Shown: positions 5,121 to 32,319 of the stretch, one piece after another | Numbering within the stretch: position 1 is the first letter of the stretch | Layout of the letters: every line of letters begins with the position of its first letter | DNA from: Micromonospora peucetia | GTDB taxonomy: Bacteria > Actinomycetota > Actinomycetes > Mycobacteriales > Micromonosporaceae | Assembly (NCBI RefSeq): GCF_900091625.1 | Contig: NZ_FMIC01000002.1 | Coordinates: 3,100,001-3,164,000 of the forward strand | Direction: 5' to 3' | DNA length: 64,000 nt | Notes under the pieces: model-generated | Seen by the model: only the letters and a program-made list of their open reading frames with translations | Database searches by the model: none | What the model was told of the DNA's origin: nothing | Translations under genes and position numbers: made by a program

Positions 5121-6059
5121 GTGCGTGACATCGCCGTTTTCAGTGGAACCGCCCATCCCGAACTCGCCGCCGAGATCTGCGCCCATCTCGGCGTGCCGCT
5201 ACATCCGGTACGGGTGTCCCGGTTCGCCAACGACTGCCTGGAAGTGCAACTACAGGCCAACTGCCGGGAGCGGGACGTCTTCCTGATCCAGCCGCTGGTG
5301 CCGCCCGTGCAGGAGAACCTGGTCGAGCTGCTGCTCATGATCGACGCTGCCCGGGGCGCCTCGGCCGGCCGGATCACCGTGGTGCTGCCGCACTACGCGT
5401 ACGCCCGGTCGGACAAGAAGGACGCGCCGCGCATCTCGATCGGCGGACGGCTCGTCGCCGACCTGCTCACCTCGGCGGGCGCGGACCGGGTGCTGGCGAT
5501 GACCCTGCACTCGCCCCAGGTGCACGGCTTCTTCAGCGTGCCGGTCGACCACCTGCACGCGCTACGTGAGCTGGCCGACCACTTCACCCGCTACGACCTG
5601 AGCAACACGGTGGTGGTCTCGCCGGACCTCGGCAACGCCAAGGAGGCGGCGGCGTTCGCCCGGCGGCTCGGCACCCCGGTGGCCGCCGGGGCGAAGCAGC
5701 GGTTCAGCGACGACCGGGTCAAGATCAGTGCGGTGATCGGCGACGTGGCCGACCGGGACGTGATCGTGCTCGACGACGAGATCGCCAAGGGCAGCACGGT
5801 GATCGAGCTGATGGAGCACCTGCGCGAGCGGAAGGTCCGCTCGATCCGGCTGGCCTGTACGCACGGCCTCTTCTCCAGTGGCGCGTTGCAGCGGCTGAGC
5901 GAGCAGGAGGGTGTGCTGGAGATCGTCTGCACCAACACGGTGCCGATCCCCGCCGACAAGCGGGTGCCGAAACTGGAGATCCTCTCCGTGGCGCCGGCCC
6001 TGGCCGAAGCGATGCGCCGCATCCACAACGGCGAATCCGTGAGCACCCTCTTCTCCTGA
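5121..6059 (+). CDS. prs: Ribose-phosphate diphosphokinase (PRPP synthetase), divergent paralogue
   Basis: 312 residues. The fold and order of motifs are those of PRPP synthetase, which makes PRPP from ribose 5-phosphate and [14 protein letters not shown], the flexible-loop region [20 protein letters not shown] and a C-terminal PRPP-binding loop. That loop reads DDEIAKGST rather than the canonical DDxxDTGGT, so this is probably a second, divergent enzyme and not the main housekeeping one (usually beside glmU). The start is GTG 5121, preceded by TACGAT at 8 nt, which suggests a nearly leaderless transcript. Biochemical activity is not certain. Confidence 0.85.
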
Positions 6060-6095
6060 CCCGCCCCCGCGCCCCGCCCCGCCCCGCGCGCGTCG

Positions 6096-6167
6096 GCGAT
6101 CTTGCACTTTTGGCCCTCCGTATGGGCGCTCTGTCCAGGTTTGTCGGGGCAGAAACTGCAAGATCGC
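6096..6167. repeat. GCGATCTTGCA inverted-repeat element, copy 1
   Basis: 72-bp imperfect palindrome, 37 bp after the prs stop. The arms are GCGATCTTGCACTTT (6096-6110) and the complement of GCGATCTTGCAGTTT (6153-6167), with one mismatch. Inner GCCC and GGGGC blocks extend the pairing. Copies occur at 18973-19041 and 56179-56249. It could act as a 3' hairpin or terminator, or be a small mobile repeat. The rest of the 6060-6276 spacer is G-rich with short GGGGATCGCGGG repeats. Confidence 0.85.
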
Positions 6168-6276
6168 GGGGGCGGGGATCGCGGGCCAGGGGTGGGCGGG
6201 GATCGCGGGCACGGGGACGAGGTGCGCGGGGGCCGAGGTGTACGGGGTGGGGTGAAGGTGCGGGGGTGTGGGTGGG

Positions 6277-29364: not shown

Positions 29365-29497
29365 CGACGCCCGACCACTCTGTCTCGGGCGCGCCTCGCG
29401 CCGGCTGCTTCGACACCGTTGTCGCCAGCCCGTTCTGACGGGTCGGCCGCGCGCCTTGCGTGTCTCTGGGGCACCTCAGACAACGGAGGACGCCGCC

Positions 29498-31213
29498 ATG
29501 GCGGTCAGCAGCATCCCGGCCCGGGCCGGGGACCCCACGTCCCCCCGACCGGCCCGGACCCCCCGCCGGCCCCGTGGGGAAGGTCAGTGGGCGCTCGGTC
29601 ATCGCGAGCCGCTCAACCCCAACGAGCGGATCAAGAAGGACGACGATCCGCTGAACGTACGGGCCCGGATCGAGCACATCTACGCCCACCACGGGTTCGC
29701 CTCGATCGACCCGCAGGATCTGCGCGGCCGGTTCCGCTGGTGGGGCCTCTACACCCAGCGCAAGGCGGGCATCGACGGCGGCCGTACCGCCGTGCTGGAG
29801 CCGCACGAGCTGGAGGACGAGTTCTTCATGCTCCGGGTCCGGGTCGACGGGGGCCAGCTCAACCTGGCTCAGCTCCGGGTGGTCGCGGACATCTCCCGCG
29901 AGTTCGCCCGGGACACCGCCGACATCACCGACCGGCAGAACATCCAGTACCACTGGATCCGGGTCGAGGACATGCCGGAGATCTGGCGCCGGTTGGAGTC
30001 CGTCGGCCTGCAGACCACCGAGGCGTGTGGGGACTGCCCCCGTATCGTGCTGGGCAGTCCGGTCGCCGGGGTGGCCCGCGACGAGCTGGTCGACCCGACC
30101 CCGGCGATCGACGAGATCGTCCGCCGGTACGTGGGCGACAAGGCGTACTCCAACCTGCCGCGCAAGTTCAAGACTTCCATCTCCTGGCTGGTCGACACCC
30201 CGTACGAGGCGAACGACATCTCCTTCCTCGGGGTGGACCACCCGGACCACGGCCCGGGCTTCGATGTCTGGGTCGGCGGTGGCCTGTCCACGAACCCCAT
30301 GCTGGCCCAGCGGCTCGGCGTCTGGGTGTCGCTGGACGAGGTGCCGGACGTCTGGGCCGGCGTGGTCGGCATCTTCCGTGACTACGGCTACCGCCGGCTG
30401 CGTAACCGCGCCCGGCTGAAGTTCCTGGTCGCCGACTGGGGCGTGGAGAAGTTCCGCGAGGTGCTGGAGAAGGAGTACCTGGGCCAGGCCCTGCTCGACG
30501 GCCCGGCCCCCCAGTTGCCCGACCGGCCGGTGGACCACATCGGGGTGCACCCGCAGCGCGACGGGCGCCACTGGGTGGGTGCCGCCCCGGTGGTGGGACG
30601 GGTCTCCGGCGGGCAGCTCGCCCGCCTGGCCGACGTGGTCGAGGCGCACGGCAGCGGGCGGGTGCGACTCACCCCGTACCAGAAGCTGTTGGTGCTGGAC
30701 GTGCCGCCGGAGCGGACCGACTCGCTGGTGCGGGAGCTGCGCGGGATCGGCCTGGAGGCGCAGCCGTCGGCCTGGCGGCGCGGCACCATGGCCTGCACCG
30801 GCATCGAGTACTGCAAGCTGGCCATCGTCGAGACCAAGGCGCGCGGCGAGGAGTTGGTGGCCCGGCTGGAGGAGCGGCTGCGCGACTTCGACGCCGACAT
30901 CTCCATCCACCTCAACGGGTGCCCCAACGCCTGCGCCCGCACCCAGGTCGCCGACATCGGTCTCAAGGGCCAGTTGGTGGTCGGCCCGGACGGCCAGCAG
31001 GTGGAGGGCTTCCAGGTCCACCTCGGCGGCGGGCTCGGCATGGCCGCGGGGCAGACCGCCGGGTTCGGCCGCAAGCTGCGCGGTCTGAAGACCACCGCCG
31101 AGGAGCTTCCGGCGTACGTGGAGCGGCTGGCCCGGCGCTACCTGGCCGGCCGGGTGGCGGGCGAGACGTTCGCCAACTGGGTGATCAGGGTCGACGAGGA
31201 GGAACTCCGATGA
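29498..31213 (+). CDS. sir: Ferredoxin-dependent sulfite (nitrite/sulfite) reductase
   Basis: 571 residues, full length for the assimilatory siroheme enzyme. Two ferredoxin-like half domains and two siroheme domains are visible. The cluster ligands are in MACTGIEYC (C-x5-C) and NGCPNAC (C-x3-C), the order that binds [4Fe-4S] next to siroheme. The nearby cysH and sirohydrochlorin chelatase genes favour sulfite reduction over nitrite. ATG 29498 has GGAGG upstream. The stop lies in an ATGA that now leads into a repeat cassette and not directly into the next gene. Confidence 0.94.
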   Translation: MAVSSIPARAGDPTSPRPARTPRRPRGEGQWALGHREPLNPNERIKKDDDPLNVRARIEHIYAHHGFASIDPQDLRGRFRWWGLYTQRKAGIDGGRTAVLEPHELEDEFFMLRVRVDGGQLNLAQLRVVADISREFARDTADITDRQNIQYHWIRVEDMPEIWRRLESVGLQTTEACGDCPRIVLGSPVAGVARDELVDPTPAIDEIVRRYVGDKAYSNLPRKFKTSISWLVDTPYEANDISFLGVDHPDHGPGFDVWVGGGLSTNPMLAQRLGVWVSLDEVPDVWAGVVGIFRDYGYRRLRNRARLKFLVADWGVEKFREVLEKEYLGQALLDGPAPQLPDRPVDHIGVHPQRDGRHWVGAAPVVGRVSGGQLARLADVVEAHGSGRVRLTPYQKLLVLDVPPERTDSLVRELRGIGLEAQPSAWRRGTMACTGIEYCKLAIVETKARGEELVARLEERLRDFDADISIHLNGCPNACARTQVADIGLKGQLVVGPDGQQVEGFQVHLGGGLGMAAGQTAGFGRKLRGLKTTAEELPAYVERLARRYLAGRVAGETFANWVIRVDEEELR

Positions 31214-31363
31214 GCGAGCGCAGCGAGCGAATCAGCAGGTGCGGTGCCATGGAGCCTCGTCGCGGTGCCGAGCGCAGCGAGGTGACGCGATGAGCGAGCG
31301 CAGCGAGCGAATCAGCCGGCTCCGGGGCCCTCGTCGCGGTGCCGAGCGCAGCGAGGTGACGCG
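31210..31363 (+). repeat. Two tandem start-stop (MSERSER) cassettes
   Basis: Units at 31210-31289 (80 bp) and 31290-31363 (74 bp). Each begins ATGAGCGAGCGCAGCGAGCG and ends with a GAGCGCAGCGAGGTGACGCG block. Each is a complete mini-frame (27 and 25 residues beginning MSERSERISR), whose TGA overlaps the ATG of what follows. The first ATG overlaps the reductase stop and the last TGA overlaps ATG 31364. Removing both units would rejoin the reductase and the zinc-ribbon gene at a single ATGA. ATGAGCGAG recurs at both ends like a 9-bp target duplication. Confidence 0.88.
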
Positions 31364-31522
31364 ATGAGCGAGACCCGGTCCGCGCCGCTGTACTGCCCGT
31401 ACTGCGGCGAGGAGGACCTGCGTCCGAGCGAGGCTGGCCACGGCGCCTGGGAGTGCCACGCGTGCGCCCGGGTGTTCACGGTGAAGTTCACCGGCCTGCT
31501 CGGCAGGGCGGTGGCCCGGTGA
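31364..31522 (+). CDS. Small zinc-ribbon protein of the sulfur operon
   Basis: 52 residues. Two Cys pairs, CPYC near residue 11 and CHAC near 34, form a zinc-ribbon. The C-terminus is FTVKFTGLLGRAVAR. Small proteins of this kind sit between the sulfite reductase and cysH genes in other actinobacteria as I recall, but their role is unknown. ATG 31364 lies in ATGA, overlapping the stop of the second repeat cassette. Its own stop overlaps the cysH start (GTGA). Too short for many gene finders. Confidence 0.8.
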   Translation: MSETRSAPLYCPYCGEEDLRPSEAGHGAWECHACARVFTVKFTGLLGRAVAR

Positions 31523-32319
31523 GCGGGGGCACGGGCGACCAGCCGGGCCTCGTCTCGGCGGCAGGCCTGGGCCTGGTCGGCCTGGGCCTGGTCGGCCTGG
31601 GCGGTCCGGCGCCGGCCGACCCGGCCCGGCGTGGCGCCGACGAGCTGCGCGCGCTGGCCGAGGAGGCCGGCCGGGAGTTGGAGGGCGCGCCCGCGCTGGA
31701 GATCGCGCGCTGGGCGGCCGAGACGTTCGGCGACCGGTTCTGCGTCACCAGCTCGATGGCTGACGCCGTGCTGGCCCACCTGGTTTCCCGGGTCGCCCCG
31801 GGGGTGGACGTGGTCTTCCTCGACACCGGCCTGCACTTCCCGGAGACGCTCAGGGTCCGTGACGAGGTGGCCCGGACGCTGCCGGTGAACGTTCGGTCAA
31901 TCCGGCCGCGACTGACCGTGGGCCAGCAGGACGGCCAGTACGGCCCCCGCCTGTTCAACAAGGCCCCGGACGACTGCTGCCAGTTGCGCAAGGTGGAGCC
32001 GCTGGAGCGGGCCCTCGCCGGCTACGACGCGTGGGCCGCCGGGCTGCGCCGGGACGAGTCGCCGACCAGGGCGAACACAGCGGTGGTGACCTTCGACGCC
32101 CGCCGGGGCAAGGTCAAGGTCAACCCGATCGCGGCGTGGCGGCAGGCCGACGTGGACGCCTACGTCGCCCGCTGGAACGTGCCGGTCAACGAGCTGTTCA
32201 AGCAGGGCTACGGCTCGATCGGCTGCTGGCCCTGCACTCGGCGCACGAAGGCGGGGGAGGATCCGCGGGCCGGCCGCTGGGCCATGTTCGAGAAGACCGA
32301 GTGCGGTCTGCACCTCTGA
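31519..32319 (+). CDS. cysH: Adenylyl-sulfate (APS/PAPS) reductase
   Basis: 266 residues. It reduces activated sulfate to sulfite with thioredoxin. The nucleotide-site region SSMADAVLAHL and FLDTGLHFPET are clear. The two Cys pairs CC (in DDCCQLRKVEPL) and C-x2-C (in GCWPCTRR) mark the [4Fe-4S] type that uses APS. The catalytic Cys is in the C-terminal ECGLH. GTG 31519 overlaps the zinc-ribbon stop. The first 40 residues include a GLGLV repeat encoded by tandem DNA and look dispensable. Confidence 0.94.
   Translation: MSGGTGDQPGLVSAAGLGLVGLGLVGLGGPAPADPARRGADELRALAEEAGRELEGAPALEIARWAAETFGDRFCVTSSMADAVLAHLVSRVAPGVDVVFLDTGLHFPETLRVRDEVARTLPVNVRSIRPRLTVGQQDGQYGPRLFNKAPDDCCQLRKVEPLERALAGYDAWAAGLRRDESPTRANTAVVTFDARRGKVKVNPIAAWRQADVDAYVARWNVPVNELFKQGYGSIGCWPCTRRTKAGEDPRAGRWAMFEKTECGLHL

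What the first reader, a model, noticed from the sequence alone, without database searches (positions are those of the whole stretch)
31210..31363. Start-stop repeat cassettes inserted exactly at an ATGA gene junction
Two tandem units of 80 and 74 bp lie between the sulfite reductase and the zinc-ribbon gene. Each unit starts with ATG inside the stop of the gene before it and ends with a TGA inside the ATG of what follows, so translational coupling is kept across the chain reductase - mini-frame - mini-frame - zinc-ribbon. Deleting both units would restore a plain ATGA overlap, and ATGAGCGAG is repeated at both edges like a target duplication. I recall MSERSER-type repeats as common in Micromonosporaceae, but an element that inserts into ATGA junctions and rebuilds the junction each time would be a new kind of repeat.
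Basis: partly seen in the sequence, partly recalled or inferred. Interest (0 to 1): 0.8.

Follow-up and report, generated by a model that had tools for sequence, protein, structure and literature searches.

The report
MIRU-like start-codon repeats in Micromonospora
Two tandem copies of a short, mobile-looking repeat sit exactly at a gene's start codon and carry a tiny reading frame that would hand ribosomes on to the gene; this kind of repeat is known from mycobacteria, but this family adds a conserved folded structure at each end in which the start codon itself is base-paired.

Summary
Units 31210-31289 (80 bp) and 31290-31363 (74 bp) each run from one ATGA to the next and hold a 27- or 25-codon frame whose TGA overlaps the next ATG. 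The genome has at least 17 such units at 15 sites. Orthologous junctions without the unit exist at all four sites tested; 50 of 59 readable sulfite-reductase junctions are empty. Named copies occur in many actinobacterial genera. Unit lengths mostly change in threes, keeping the overlap frame. The principle is not new: a 2025 review says mycobacterial MIRUs appear mobile, insert at start codons and couple an internal ORF at -4 nt. What I met in none of my ten paper searches is the structure: both ends form hairpins with the start codon as one strand, supported by covariation that includes the downstream gene's start base and codon 2. G.U far outnumber A.C pairs, so the sense strand folds. No mobilising enzyme was identified; Y1 transposases do not track the repeat. 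Verdict: new variant of a known kind.

The parts
29456..31213 (+). nitrite/sulfite reductase gene (upstream partner; true start codon not determined); its TGA 31211-31213 lies inside the first ATGA
   Evidence: ORF; Pfam NIR_SIR 4.7e-53 and NIR_SIR_ferr 1.2e-38 on window 29495-31210
31210..31289 (+). unit 1, 80 bp; mini-ORF of 27 codons whose TGA (31291-31293) overlaps the next ATG
   Evidence: R1 match E 2.1e-10
31210..31232 (+). HP1 of unit 1: hairpin with the mini-ORF start codon in its 5' strand (RTGAGY with RCGAAY, tandem G.A steps, GNA loop)
   Evidence: family covariation; not recovered when this copy is folded alone
31256..31294 (+). HP2 of unit 1: hairpin with the next start codon (31290) in its 3' strand
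   Evidence: RNA fold; family covariation
31279..31282 (+). Shine-Dalgarno-like GAGG, 7 nt before ATG 31290
   Evidence: read from the sequence
31290..31363 (+). unit 2, 74 bp; mini-ORF of 25 codons whose TGA (31365-31367) overlaps the zinc-ribbon ATG
   Evidence: R1 match E 1.3e-14
31290..31312 (+). HP1 of unit 2
   Evidence: same sequence as HP1 of unit 1
31330..31368 (+). HP2 of unit 2: CTCGTCGCG/CGCGATGAG stem holding the zinc-ribbon start codon
   Evidence: RNA fold
31353..31356 (+). Shine-Dalgarno-like GAGG, 7 nt before ATG 31364
   Evidence: read from the sequence
31364..31522 (+). 52-aa zinc-ribbon-like gene (downstream partner)
   Evidence: ORF; two CxxC motifs read by eye; no Pfam family at 1e-3

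Best explanation
The two units are tandem copies of a dispersed, MIRU-like repeat that sits at gene start codons. Each unit brings its own start, a frame of usually 24-28 codons, a Shine-Dalgarno-like GAGG/GGAG and a hairpin that buries the next start codon; the frame ends in a TGA overlapping that start. Ribosomes that finish sulfite reductase (or, at other loci, use the original ribosome-binding site) translate mini-frame 1, then mini-frame 2, open each hairpin and re-initiate on the zinc-ribbon gene, so that an insertion is nearly silent for the host gene. Shown: anatomy, frame conservation, filled and empty sites, distribution, covariation of both hairpins including the start codons. Inferred: that the frames are translated, that coupling is by termination and re-initiation, and that the repeat moves by insertion with the help of an enzyme not identified here.
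For: (1) At least 17 units at 15 sites plus a shortened copy in the same genome (some of these sequences are in R1 and match by construction). Of 18 pattern hits (2 hits for the reversed pattern), 16 have a mini-frame whose TGA overlaps an RTG. (3) Empty sites: sulfite reductase 50 of 59 parsed loci (60 read, one unparsed); zero-length inserts in 7 of 30 fah-like, 8 of 30 RidA-like and 7 of 30 trpB loci, trpB with 15 more within 8 nt. (4) Frame: 114 of 132 named copies close before codon 45 in a TGA overlapping ATG or GTG (for a few, such as L034, L077 and L103, that overlap is not the gene start). With the gene start chosen without regard to frame, 82 of 92 lengths are 2 mod 3, and 38 more copies gave no candidate. 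RidA-site inserts of 29 nt or more: 16 of 17 are 2 mod 3. Sulfite-reductase site: all 10 units or remnants are 2 mod 3. (5) HP1: columns 1:23 p 7e-14 and 6:18 p 9e-12 among 132 copies; in 150 listed rows from the family search, mutual information 0.437 and 0.293 bits against at most 0.082 for the other pairs of variable positions. (6) HP1 and HP2 together on 65 distinct units: 95.9% of cells paired (HP2 main helix 94.0%), at most 47.5% when slid by 1-3 columns; 108 double-change cells against 26.8 in shuffles, 0 of 500. RNAalifold, not told the structure, gives both hairpins. (7) G.U against A.C cells 67 to 10, or 43 to 5 without pairs 1:23, 50:82 and 51:81: the sense strand pairs. (8) Published precedent, MIRUs.
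Against: No mobilising enzyme found: Y1_Tnp in 18 of 61 genus genomes, in 4 of 15 high-copy and 2 of 15 zero-copy genomes, and no motif in 20 Y1 loci. One unit as query found no phage or plasmid record. No target duplication beyond RTGA is shown, and gain was not polarised against loss with a tree; remnants show that loss happens too. No expression or ribosome data. Frame rule is not universal: at the fah-like site many inserts are 0 mod 3 (18, 57, 114 nt and others) and extend or replace the gene's start; five RidA-site inserts of 9 or 12 nt are 0 mod 3; dpp copies L034 and L103 are 1 mod 3 with the stop 4 nt inside the gene; six named copies are fused to their gene. HP2 in the register of A1 was seen in units selected for a GCGNAGC core at columns 63-69; over all 62 named 80-nt units pairing is 0.68 against at most 0.53 slid. 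Folded alone, window units and HP1 are no more stable than shuffles (z -0.9 to 0.8). The p-values count related copies as separate; on the 20 distinct 27-mers alone the tests are not significant.
Confidence: 0.82

Rival explanations
1. Sense-strand single-stranded-DNA element: HP1 and HP2 are the element's ends and their internal arms (RCGAAY, CTCRY) are guides that choose RTGAGY targets by pairing, as in IS200/IS605-type transposition, mobilised in trans. This would add a mobility mechanism to the best explanation.
For: Mirror arrangement target-hairpin-guide ... guide-hairpin-target. In 91 single copies the HP1 guide letters also track the downstream gene's start base and codon-2 third base (odds ratios 9.8 and 9.1, p about 4e-4). 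In named copies with a CTCRY arm, its last base is T with ATG 42, T with GTG 1, C with GTG 11, C with ATG 5. Column 47 tracks codon 2 of the gene (CG 58, GC 2, UA 2, other 3); L108 (Virgisporangium) and L123, whose genes start ATGACC, carry GGTCAT.
Against: No Y1 enzyme tracks copy number and 20 Y1 loci lack the motif. The same covariation is expected if the hairpins act only in mRNA. Other transposase families were not tested.
Confidence: 0.27
2. Cis-regulatory leader: hairpins and leader frames selected for regulation of each gene; presence and absence reflect duplication, deletion and recombination, not insertion of a mobile repeat.
For: Frame and structure are conserved; tandem copies at 80-bp period (five neighbouring matches at G001:C124); the 17- and 26-nt remnants fit deletion between the internal GAGCGNAGCGAG stretches.
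Against: Copies stand before unrelated genes; the same site is empty in most relatives; the part after the first 27 nt differs by genus, which fits spread within lineages.
Confidence: 0.1
3. Chance recurrence of an MSERSER coding motif in GC-rich DNA.
For: Such codons are common in GC-rich genomes (recalled).
Against: Reversed-pattern control 0 in 121 family genomes; R1 matches; filled and empty orthologues.
Confidence: 0.01

Closest known systems
MIRU, mycobacterial interspersed repetitive units (review PMC12548453, passages read; Supply 1997 recalled, not held)
   Same: Short dispersed repeats that appear mobile, lie at start codons, and hold an ORF coupled to the gene with -4 nt spacing, thought to limit the cost of insertion. 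Tandem 77-bp and 53-bp units between senX3 and regX3 (PMC4213456, passages read). Recalled: 46-101 bp, DTGA sites.
   Different: Other hosts (Micromonosporaceae, Nocardia, Kitasatospora, Nocardioides and others). No MIRU sequence was at hand for comparison. The passages I read do not mention start-codon hairpins.
ATGA translational coupling by RNA unfolding and re-initiation (review PMC12548453, passages)
   Same: TGA overlaps ATG; the next start lies in a hairpin that an upstream ribosome would open.
   Different: Here the coupling is carried by a repeat placed between the genes.
IS200/IS605 and REP/RAYT elements (recalled)
   Same: Terminal hairpins and an internal stretch that pairs with the insertion-site sequence.
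   Different: No Y1 transposase association; start-codon target; reading frame inside the repeat.

Membership tests
MIRU | short unit, dispersed and in tandem | tested here: met
   mostly 71-83 nt; at least 17 units at 15 sites, two of them tandem; neighbouring matches at 80-bp spacing
MIRU | at start codons with an internal ORF coupled at -4 nt | tested here: met
   114 of 132 named copies; 16 of 18 own-genome hits
MIRU | occupied and empty sites, as expected of a mobile repeat | tested here: met
   four sites; movement itself is inferred
MIRU | sequence homology with mycobacterial MIRUs | not tested
   no MIRU sequence held. R1 found 0 of 34 genomes of unnamed genus g2 and 6 of 6 of g3 (only 109 candidates per genome scored); one g2 genome, G820, has two strict-pattern hits; a MAG titled Mycobacterium has the 27-nt module (L077)
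IS200/IS605 or REP/RAYT | associated Y1 (HUH) transposase | tested here: not met
IS200/IS605 or REP/RAYT | terminal hairpins with guide pairing to the target | tested here: inconclusive
   hairpins and pairing present; a role in DNA is not shown
IS200/IS605 or REP/RAYT | cleavage and strand transfer beside a short target sequence | not testable with these tools
   needs biochemistry

The most novel reading that the evidence does not exclude
An actinobacterial class of non-autonomous elements that choose insertion sites by pairing internal guides with start codons (RTGAGY) on the sense strand, both ends being built as target-hairpin-guide, and that survive because the same hairpins, read in mRNA, form an in-frame translational relay. 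Mycobacterial MIRUs would be one branch.
Probability: 0.25. Interest if true: 0.85.

Novelty: new variant of a known kind. Interest (0 to 1): 0.6.

Why it matters
How MIRU-type repeats move, and why they lie at start codons, is to my knowledge still open (recalled). This family offers many genera with filled and empty sites and a precise, testable structure: the start codon paired with an internal arm at both ends. It also warns annotators that MSERSER mini-frames are often repeats, and that fused copies give genes repeat-derived N-termini.

Tried and rejected
Rfam scan of 31000-31600: one match, a miRNA family at E 0.26, 19.9 bits against a gathering score of 80. Y1 transposase as mobiliser: no association. 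Phylum-wide pattern scan: 2 of 396 genomes, a sample made mostly of distant taxa. Phage and plasmid records: no match with one unit as query. Target duplication: the two edges agree more often than shuffles at -1, -2, -4, -5, +1 and +6, not at -3, -6, -7, -8, but tandem copies and relatedness were not removed there, and the fah-like site does not bear it out beyond ATGA. A 6-mer that can pair with the 3' start anywhere in the unit: 100 of 110 copies against 62 in shuffles; weak, so replaced by the register-fixed tests. Fisher tests on the 20 distinct 27-mers alone: not significant. Strings such as MSERSER and GAGCGNAGCGAG in papers: 174 papers, the 20 listed are irrelevant by title. Correction made on checking: the two shortest remnants at the sulfite reductase site are 17 nt, not 20 as I first counted; this changes no conclusion (17 is also 2 mod 3).

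Full report
What is there. The window lies in a genome of 7,365,767 bases in 2 contigs. Its genus is very probably Micromonospora: the sulfite-reductase junction of L068, titled Micromonospora maritima, carries the same unit as L157 from G023, listed as same genus. Between a sulfite reductase and a 52-aa zinc-ribbon-like ORF, which is followed by a PAPS reductase, lie two units of 80 and 74 bp. Each starts at ATGA and ends just before the next ATGA. The mini-frames are 27 and 25 codons and end in the TGA of the next ATGA. GAGG stands 7 nt before each next ATG.

Copies in the genome. Searches list related places (one search scored 40 of 108 candidates, so the list may be incomplete). Model R1 scores 17 units at 15 sites, and a shortened copy in L010, among the own-genome loci given to it (several of these sequences are in the model). 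In 16 of the 18 places the mini-frame ends in a TGA overlapping an RTG. The others are L027, which looks like a chance match, and L029, a shortened copy whose frame runs into the gene. The genes behind the units are unrelated to one another; names such as trpB, RidA-like, fah-like and transport permease are by eye from translations and were not tested.

Empty sites. One search covered 61 genus genomes with the junction, and 60 loci were read. One (the window's) has two units, five have one full unit (L152, L153, L156, L157, L171), three have remnants of 26, 17 and 17 nt (L193, L202, L203), one was not parsed (L155, filled by the spans) and 50 are empty with a plain RTGA overlap. The most similar relative, G025 (97% over 269 bases), is empty and reads as the window would without the units, apart from one letter inside the gene. 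The remnants fit deletion between the two GAGCGNAGCGAG stretches of a unit and still keep the frame. Three other sites were treated in the same way: 7 of 30 fah-like, 8 of 30 RidA-like and 7 of 30 trpB loci have zero-length inserts; others hold 80-nt units, shortened ones, other inserts, or sequence that I could not relate. At the fah-like site the gene begins ATGACC in 7 of 7 empty loci, and ATGAGC in 7 of 8 loci with inserts of the 80-nt family (L268-L272, L284, L287; the window's genome, L267, keeps ATGACC); the remaining 15 loci, with other inserts, are mixed. L267 and L268 appear to share the insertion but differ there, so a substitution after insertion is possible; the trend would suit pairing of HP2 with codon 2.

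Frame. The 114 named copies that close in an overlapping TGA have lengths 80 (63), 77 (29), 74 (6), 104 (3), 83 (3), 71 (2) and eight single values. As that count requires the overlap, I also chose the gene start without regard to frame: 82 of 92 lengths are 2 mod 3, 8 are 1 and 2 are 0; 38 more copies gave no candidate. Six of the ten exceptions are picks of the internal CTCRTGAC word and two are dpp-site copies whose stop lies 4 nt inside the gene. Chance would give a third. At the RidA-like site 16 of 17 inserts of 29 nt or more are 2 mod 3, while five inserts of 9 or 12 nt are 0 mod 3; at the fah-like site many inserts are 0 mod 3 and run in frame into the gene (18, 57, 114 nt). The class that would carry ribosomes past the gene start out of frame is rare. 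This is the main argument that the mini-frames are translated; it is inference, not measurement.

Where copies lie. The titles shown name Micromonospora, Nocardia, Kitasatospora, Streptomyces, Nocardioides, Aeromicrobium, Kribbella, Phytohabitans, Virgisporangium, Plantactinospora, Asanoa, Kutzneria, Actinopolymorpha, Pseudonocardia, a MAG titled Mycobacterium and Acidimicrobiales or Acidimicrobiia MAGs. The highest count was 42 (G539). The first 27 nt are shared across genera while the rest differs, which fits spread within lineages. Of 112 non-tandem copies, 73 lie where the first TGA ends an upstream frame of at least 100 codons, against 1210 of 5570 RTGA words in the same loci. Gene overlaps are thus frequent sites, but 39 of 112 copies are not at overlaps.

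Structure. In the 27-nt module RTGAGYGAGCGNAGCGARCGAAYCATC, base 1 covaries with 23 and base 6 with 18. In 150 listed rows of the family search the same two pairs carry 0.437 and 0.293 bits, all other pairs of variable positions at most 0.082; the two samples may overlap. Both pairs belong to one antiparallel register, HP1: 1:23, 2:22, 5:19, 6:18, 9:15, 10:14, two tandem G.A steps and a GNA loop (GCGNAGC is recalled as an unusually stable mini-hairpin). HP2 is longer and includes the next start: columns 47-52 and 54-59 pair with 80-85 and 73-78, above them a GCGNAGC tip. On 65 distinct units (A1), HP1 and HP2 together have 95.9% of cells paired, slid versions at most 47.5%, 11 pairs with double changes, and 0 of 500 shuffles reach any of the five measures. 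The shuffles do not remove relatedness, so this is not a probability. RNAalifold finds both hairpins without being told. The gene's start base pairs with column 51 (UA 40, CG 16, UG 2, other 7) and its codon-2 base with column 47 (CG 58, GC 2, UA 2, other 3). Over all 62 named 80-nt units, not selected for the tip, HP2 pairing is 0.68 against at most 0.53 slid. Unit 2 of the window folds into CTCGTCGCG/CGCGATGAG with the zinc-ribbon start inside, although the whole unit is no more stable than shuffles; an isolated HP2 of L043 type is (z -5.3 as DNA, -4.8 as RNA). G.U cells outnumber A.C cells 67 to 10, or 43 to 5 without pairs 1:23, 50:82 and 51:81, so the coding-sense strand folds, as mRNA or as single-stranded DNA.

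How it most likely works. Ribosomes arriving at the stop of the upstream gene, or initiating at the old ribosome-binding site, translate the mini-frame, melt HP2, terminate at the TGA and re-initiate on the overlapping start, helped by GAGG. An insertion is then nearly neutral. How the repeat moves is open. The mirror symmetry of the ends, each with a start codon as one strand, suggests that start-codon pairing takes part in target choice. A Y1 enzyme was tested and does not track the repeat (18 of 61 genus genomes; 4 of 15 high-copy against 2 of 15 zero-copy genomes), and none of 20 Y1 loci holds the motif. Other enzyme families were not tested.

Known or new. The review PMC12548453 (passages read, not the whole text) states that MIRUs appear to be mobile, insert at start codons, and couple an internal ORF at -4 nt, citing Supply 1997. 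That is the same principle. PMC4213456 (passages read) describes 77- and 53-bp MIRUs between senX3 and regX3 and says that those exist only in M. leprae and the M. tuberculosis complex. The 1997 paper is not held and is cited from recall. Ten paper searches (listings only) showed no report of such repeats in Micromonosporaceae or of start-codon hairpins; the library holds open-licence papers only. R1 finds units in 6 of 6 genomes of unnamed genus g3 and 0 of 34 of g2 of the same order (with 109 candidates scored per genome), while one g2 genome has two strict-pattern hits (G820). Homology with mycobacterial MIRUs is neither shown nor excluded. I file it as a new, MIRU-like variant.

Noticed in passing
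RidA-site orthologues L301, L302, L304, L307, L308, L310: A different start-codon insert (GTGAGCGCGAGGAGTG...CCCCGCAGTCGCGA..., 59 nt and variants, doubled in L310) occupies the same junction in other species; five of the six lengths are 2 mod 3.
   Followed up: partly
fah-site orthologues L273, L275, L280, L281: A 57-nt insert (ATGAGCGAACGC...) that is 0 mod 3 and runs in frame into the gene; doubled (114 nt) in L280.
   Followed up: partly
L037, L057, L082, L109, L119, L150: The 5' module MSERSER(I/T)I is fused in frame to genes of about 300-760 codons, so some N-termini are repeat-derived.
   Followed up: no
G001:C124:6703-7108: Five neighbouring matches at exact 80-bp spacing, a possible variable-number tandem array; sequence not read.
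   Followed up: no
window 31565-31603: Short tandem repeat of 15 bp (CTGGGCCTGGTCGGC, about two and a half copies) in the N-terminal part of the PAPS reductase frame.
   Followed up: no
L077 (MAG titled Mycobacterium), 5918-6212: Shorter units at 66-nt spacing with the same 27-nt module, partly masked by N; a possible bridge to mycobacterial MIRUs.
   Followed up: no
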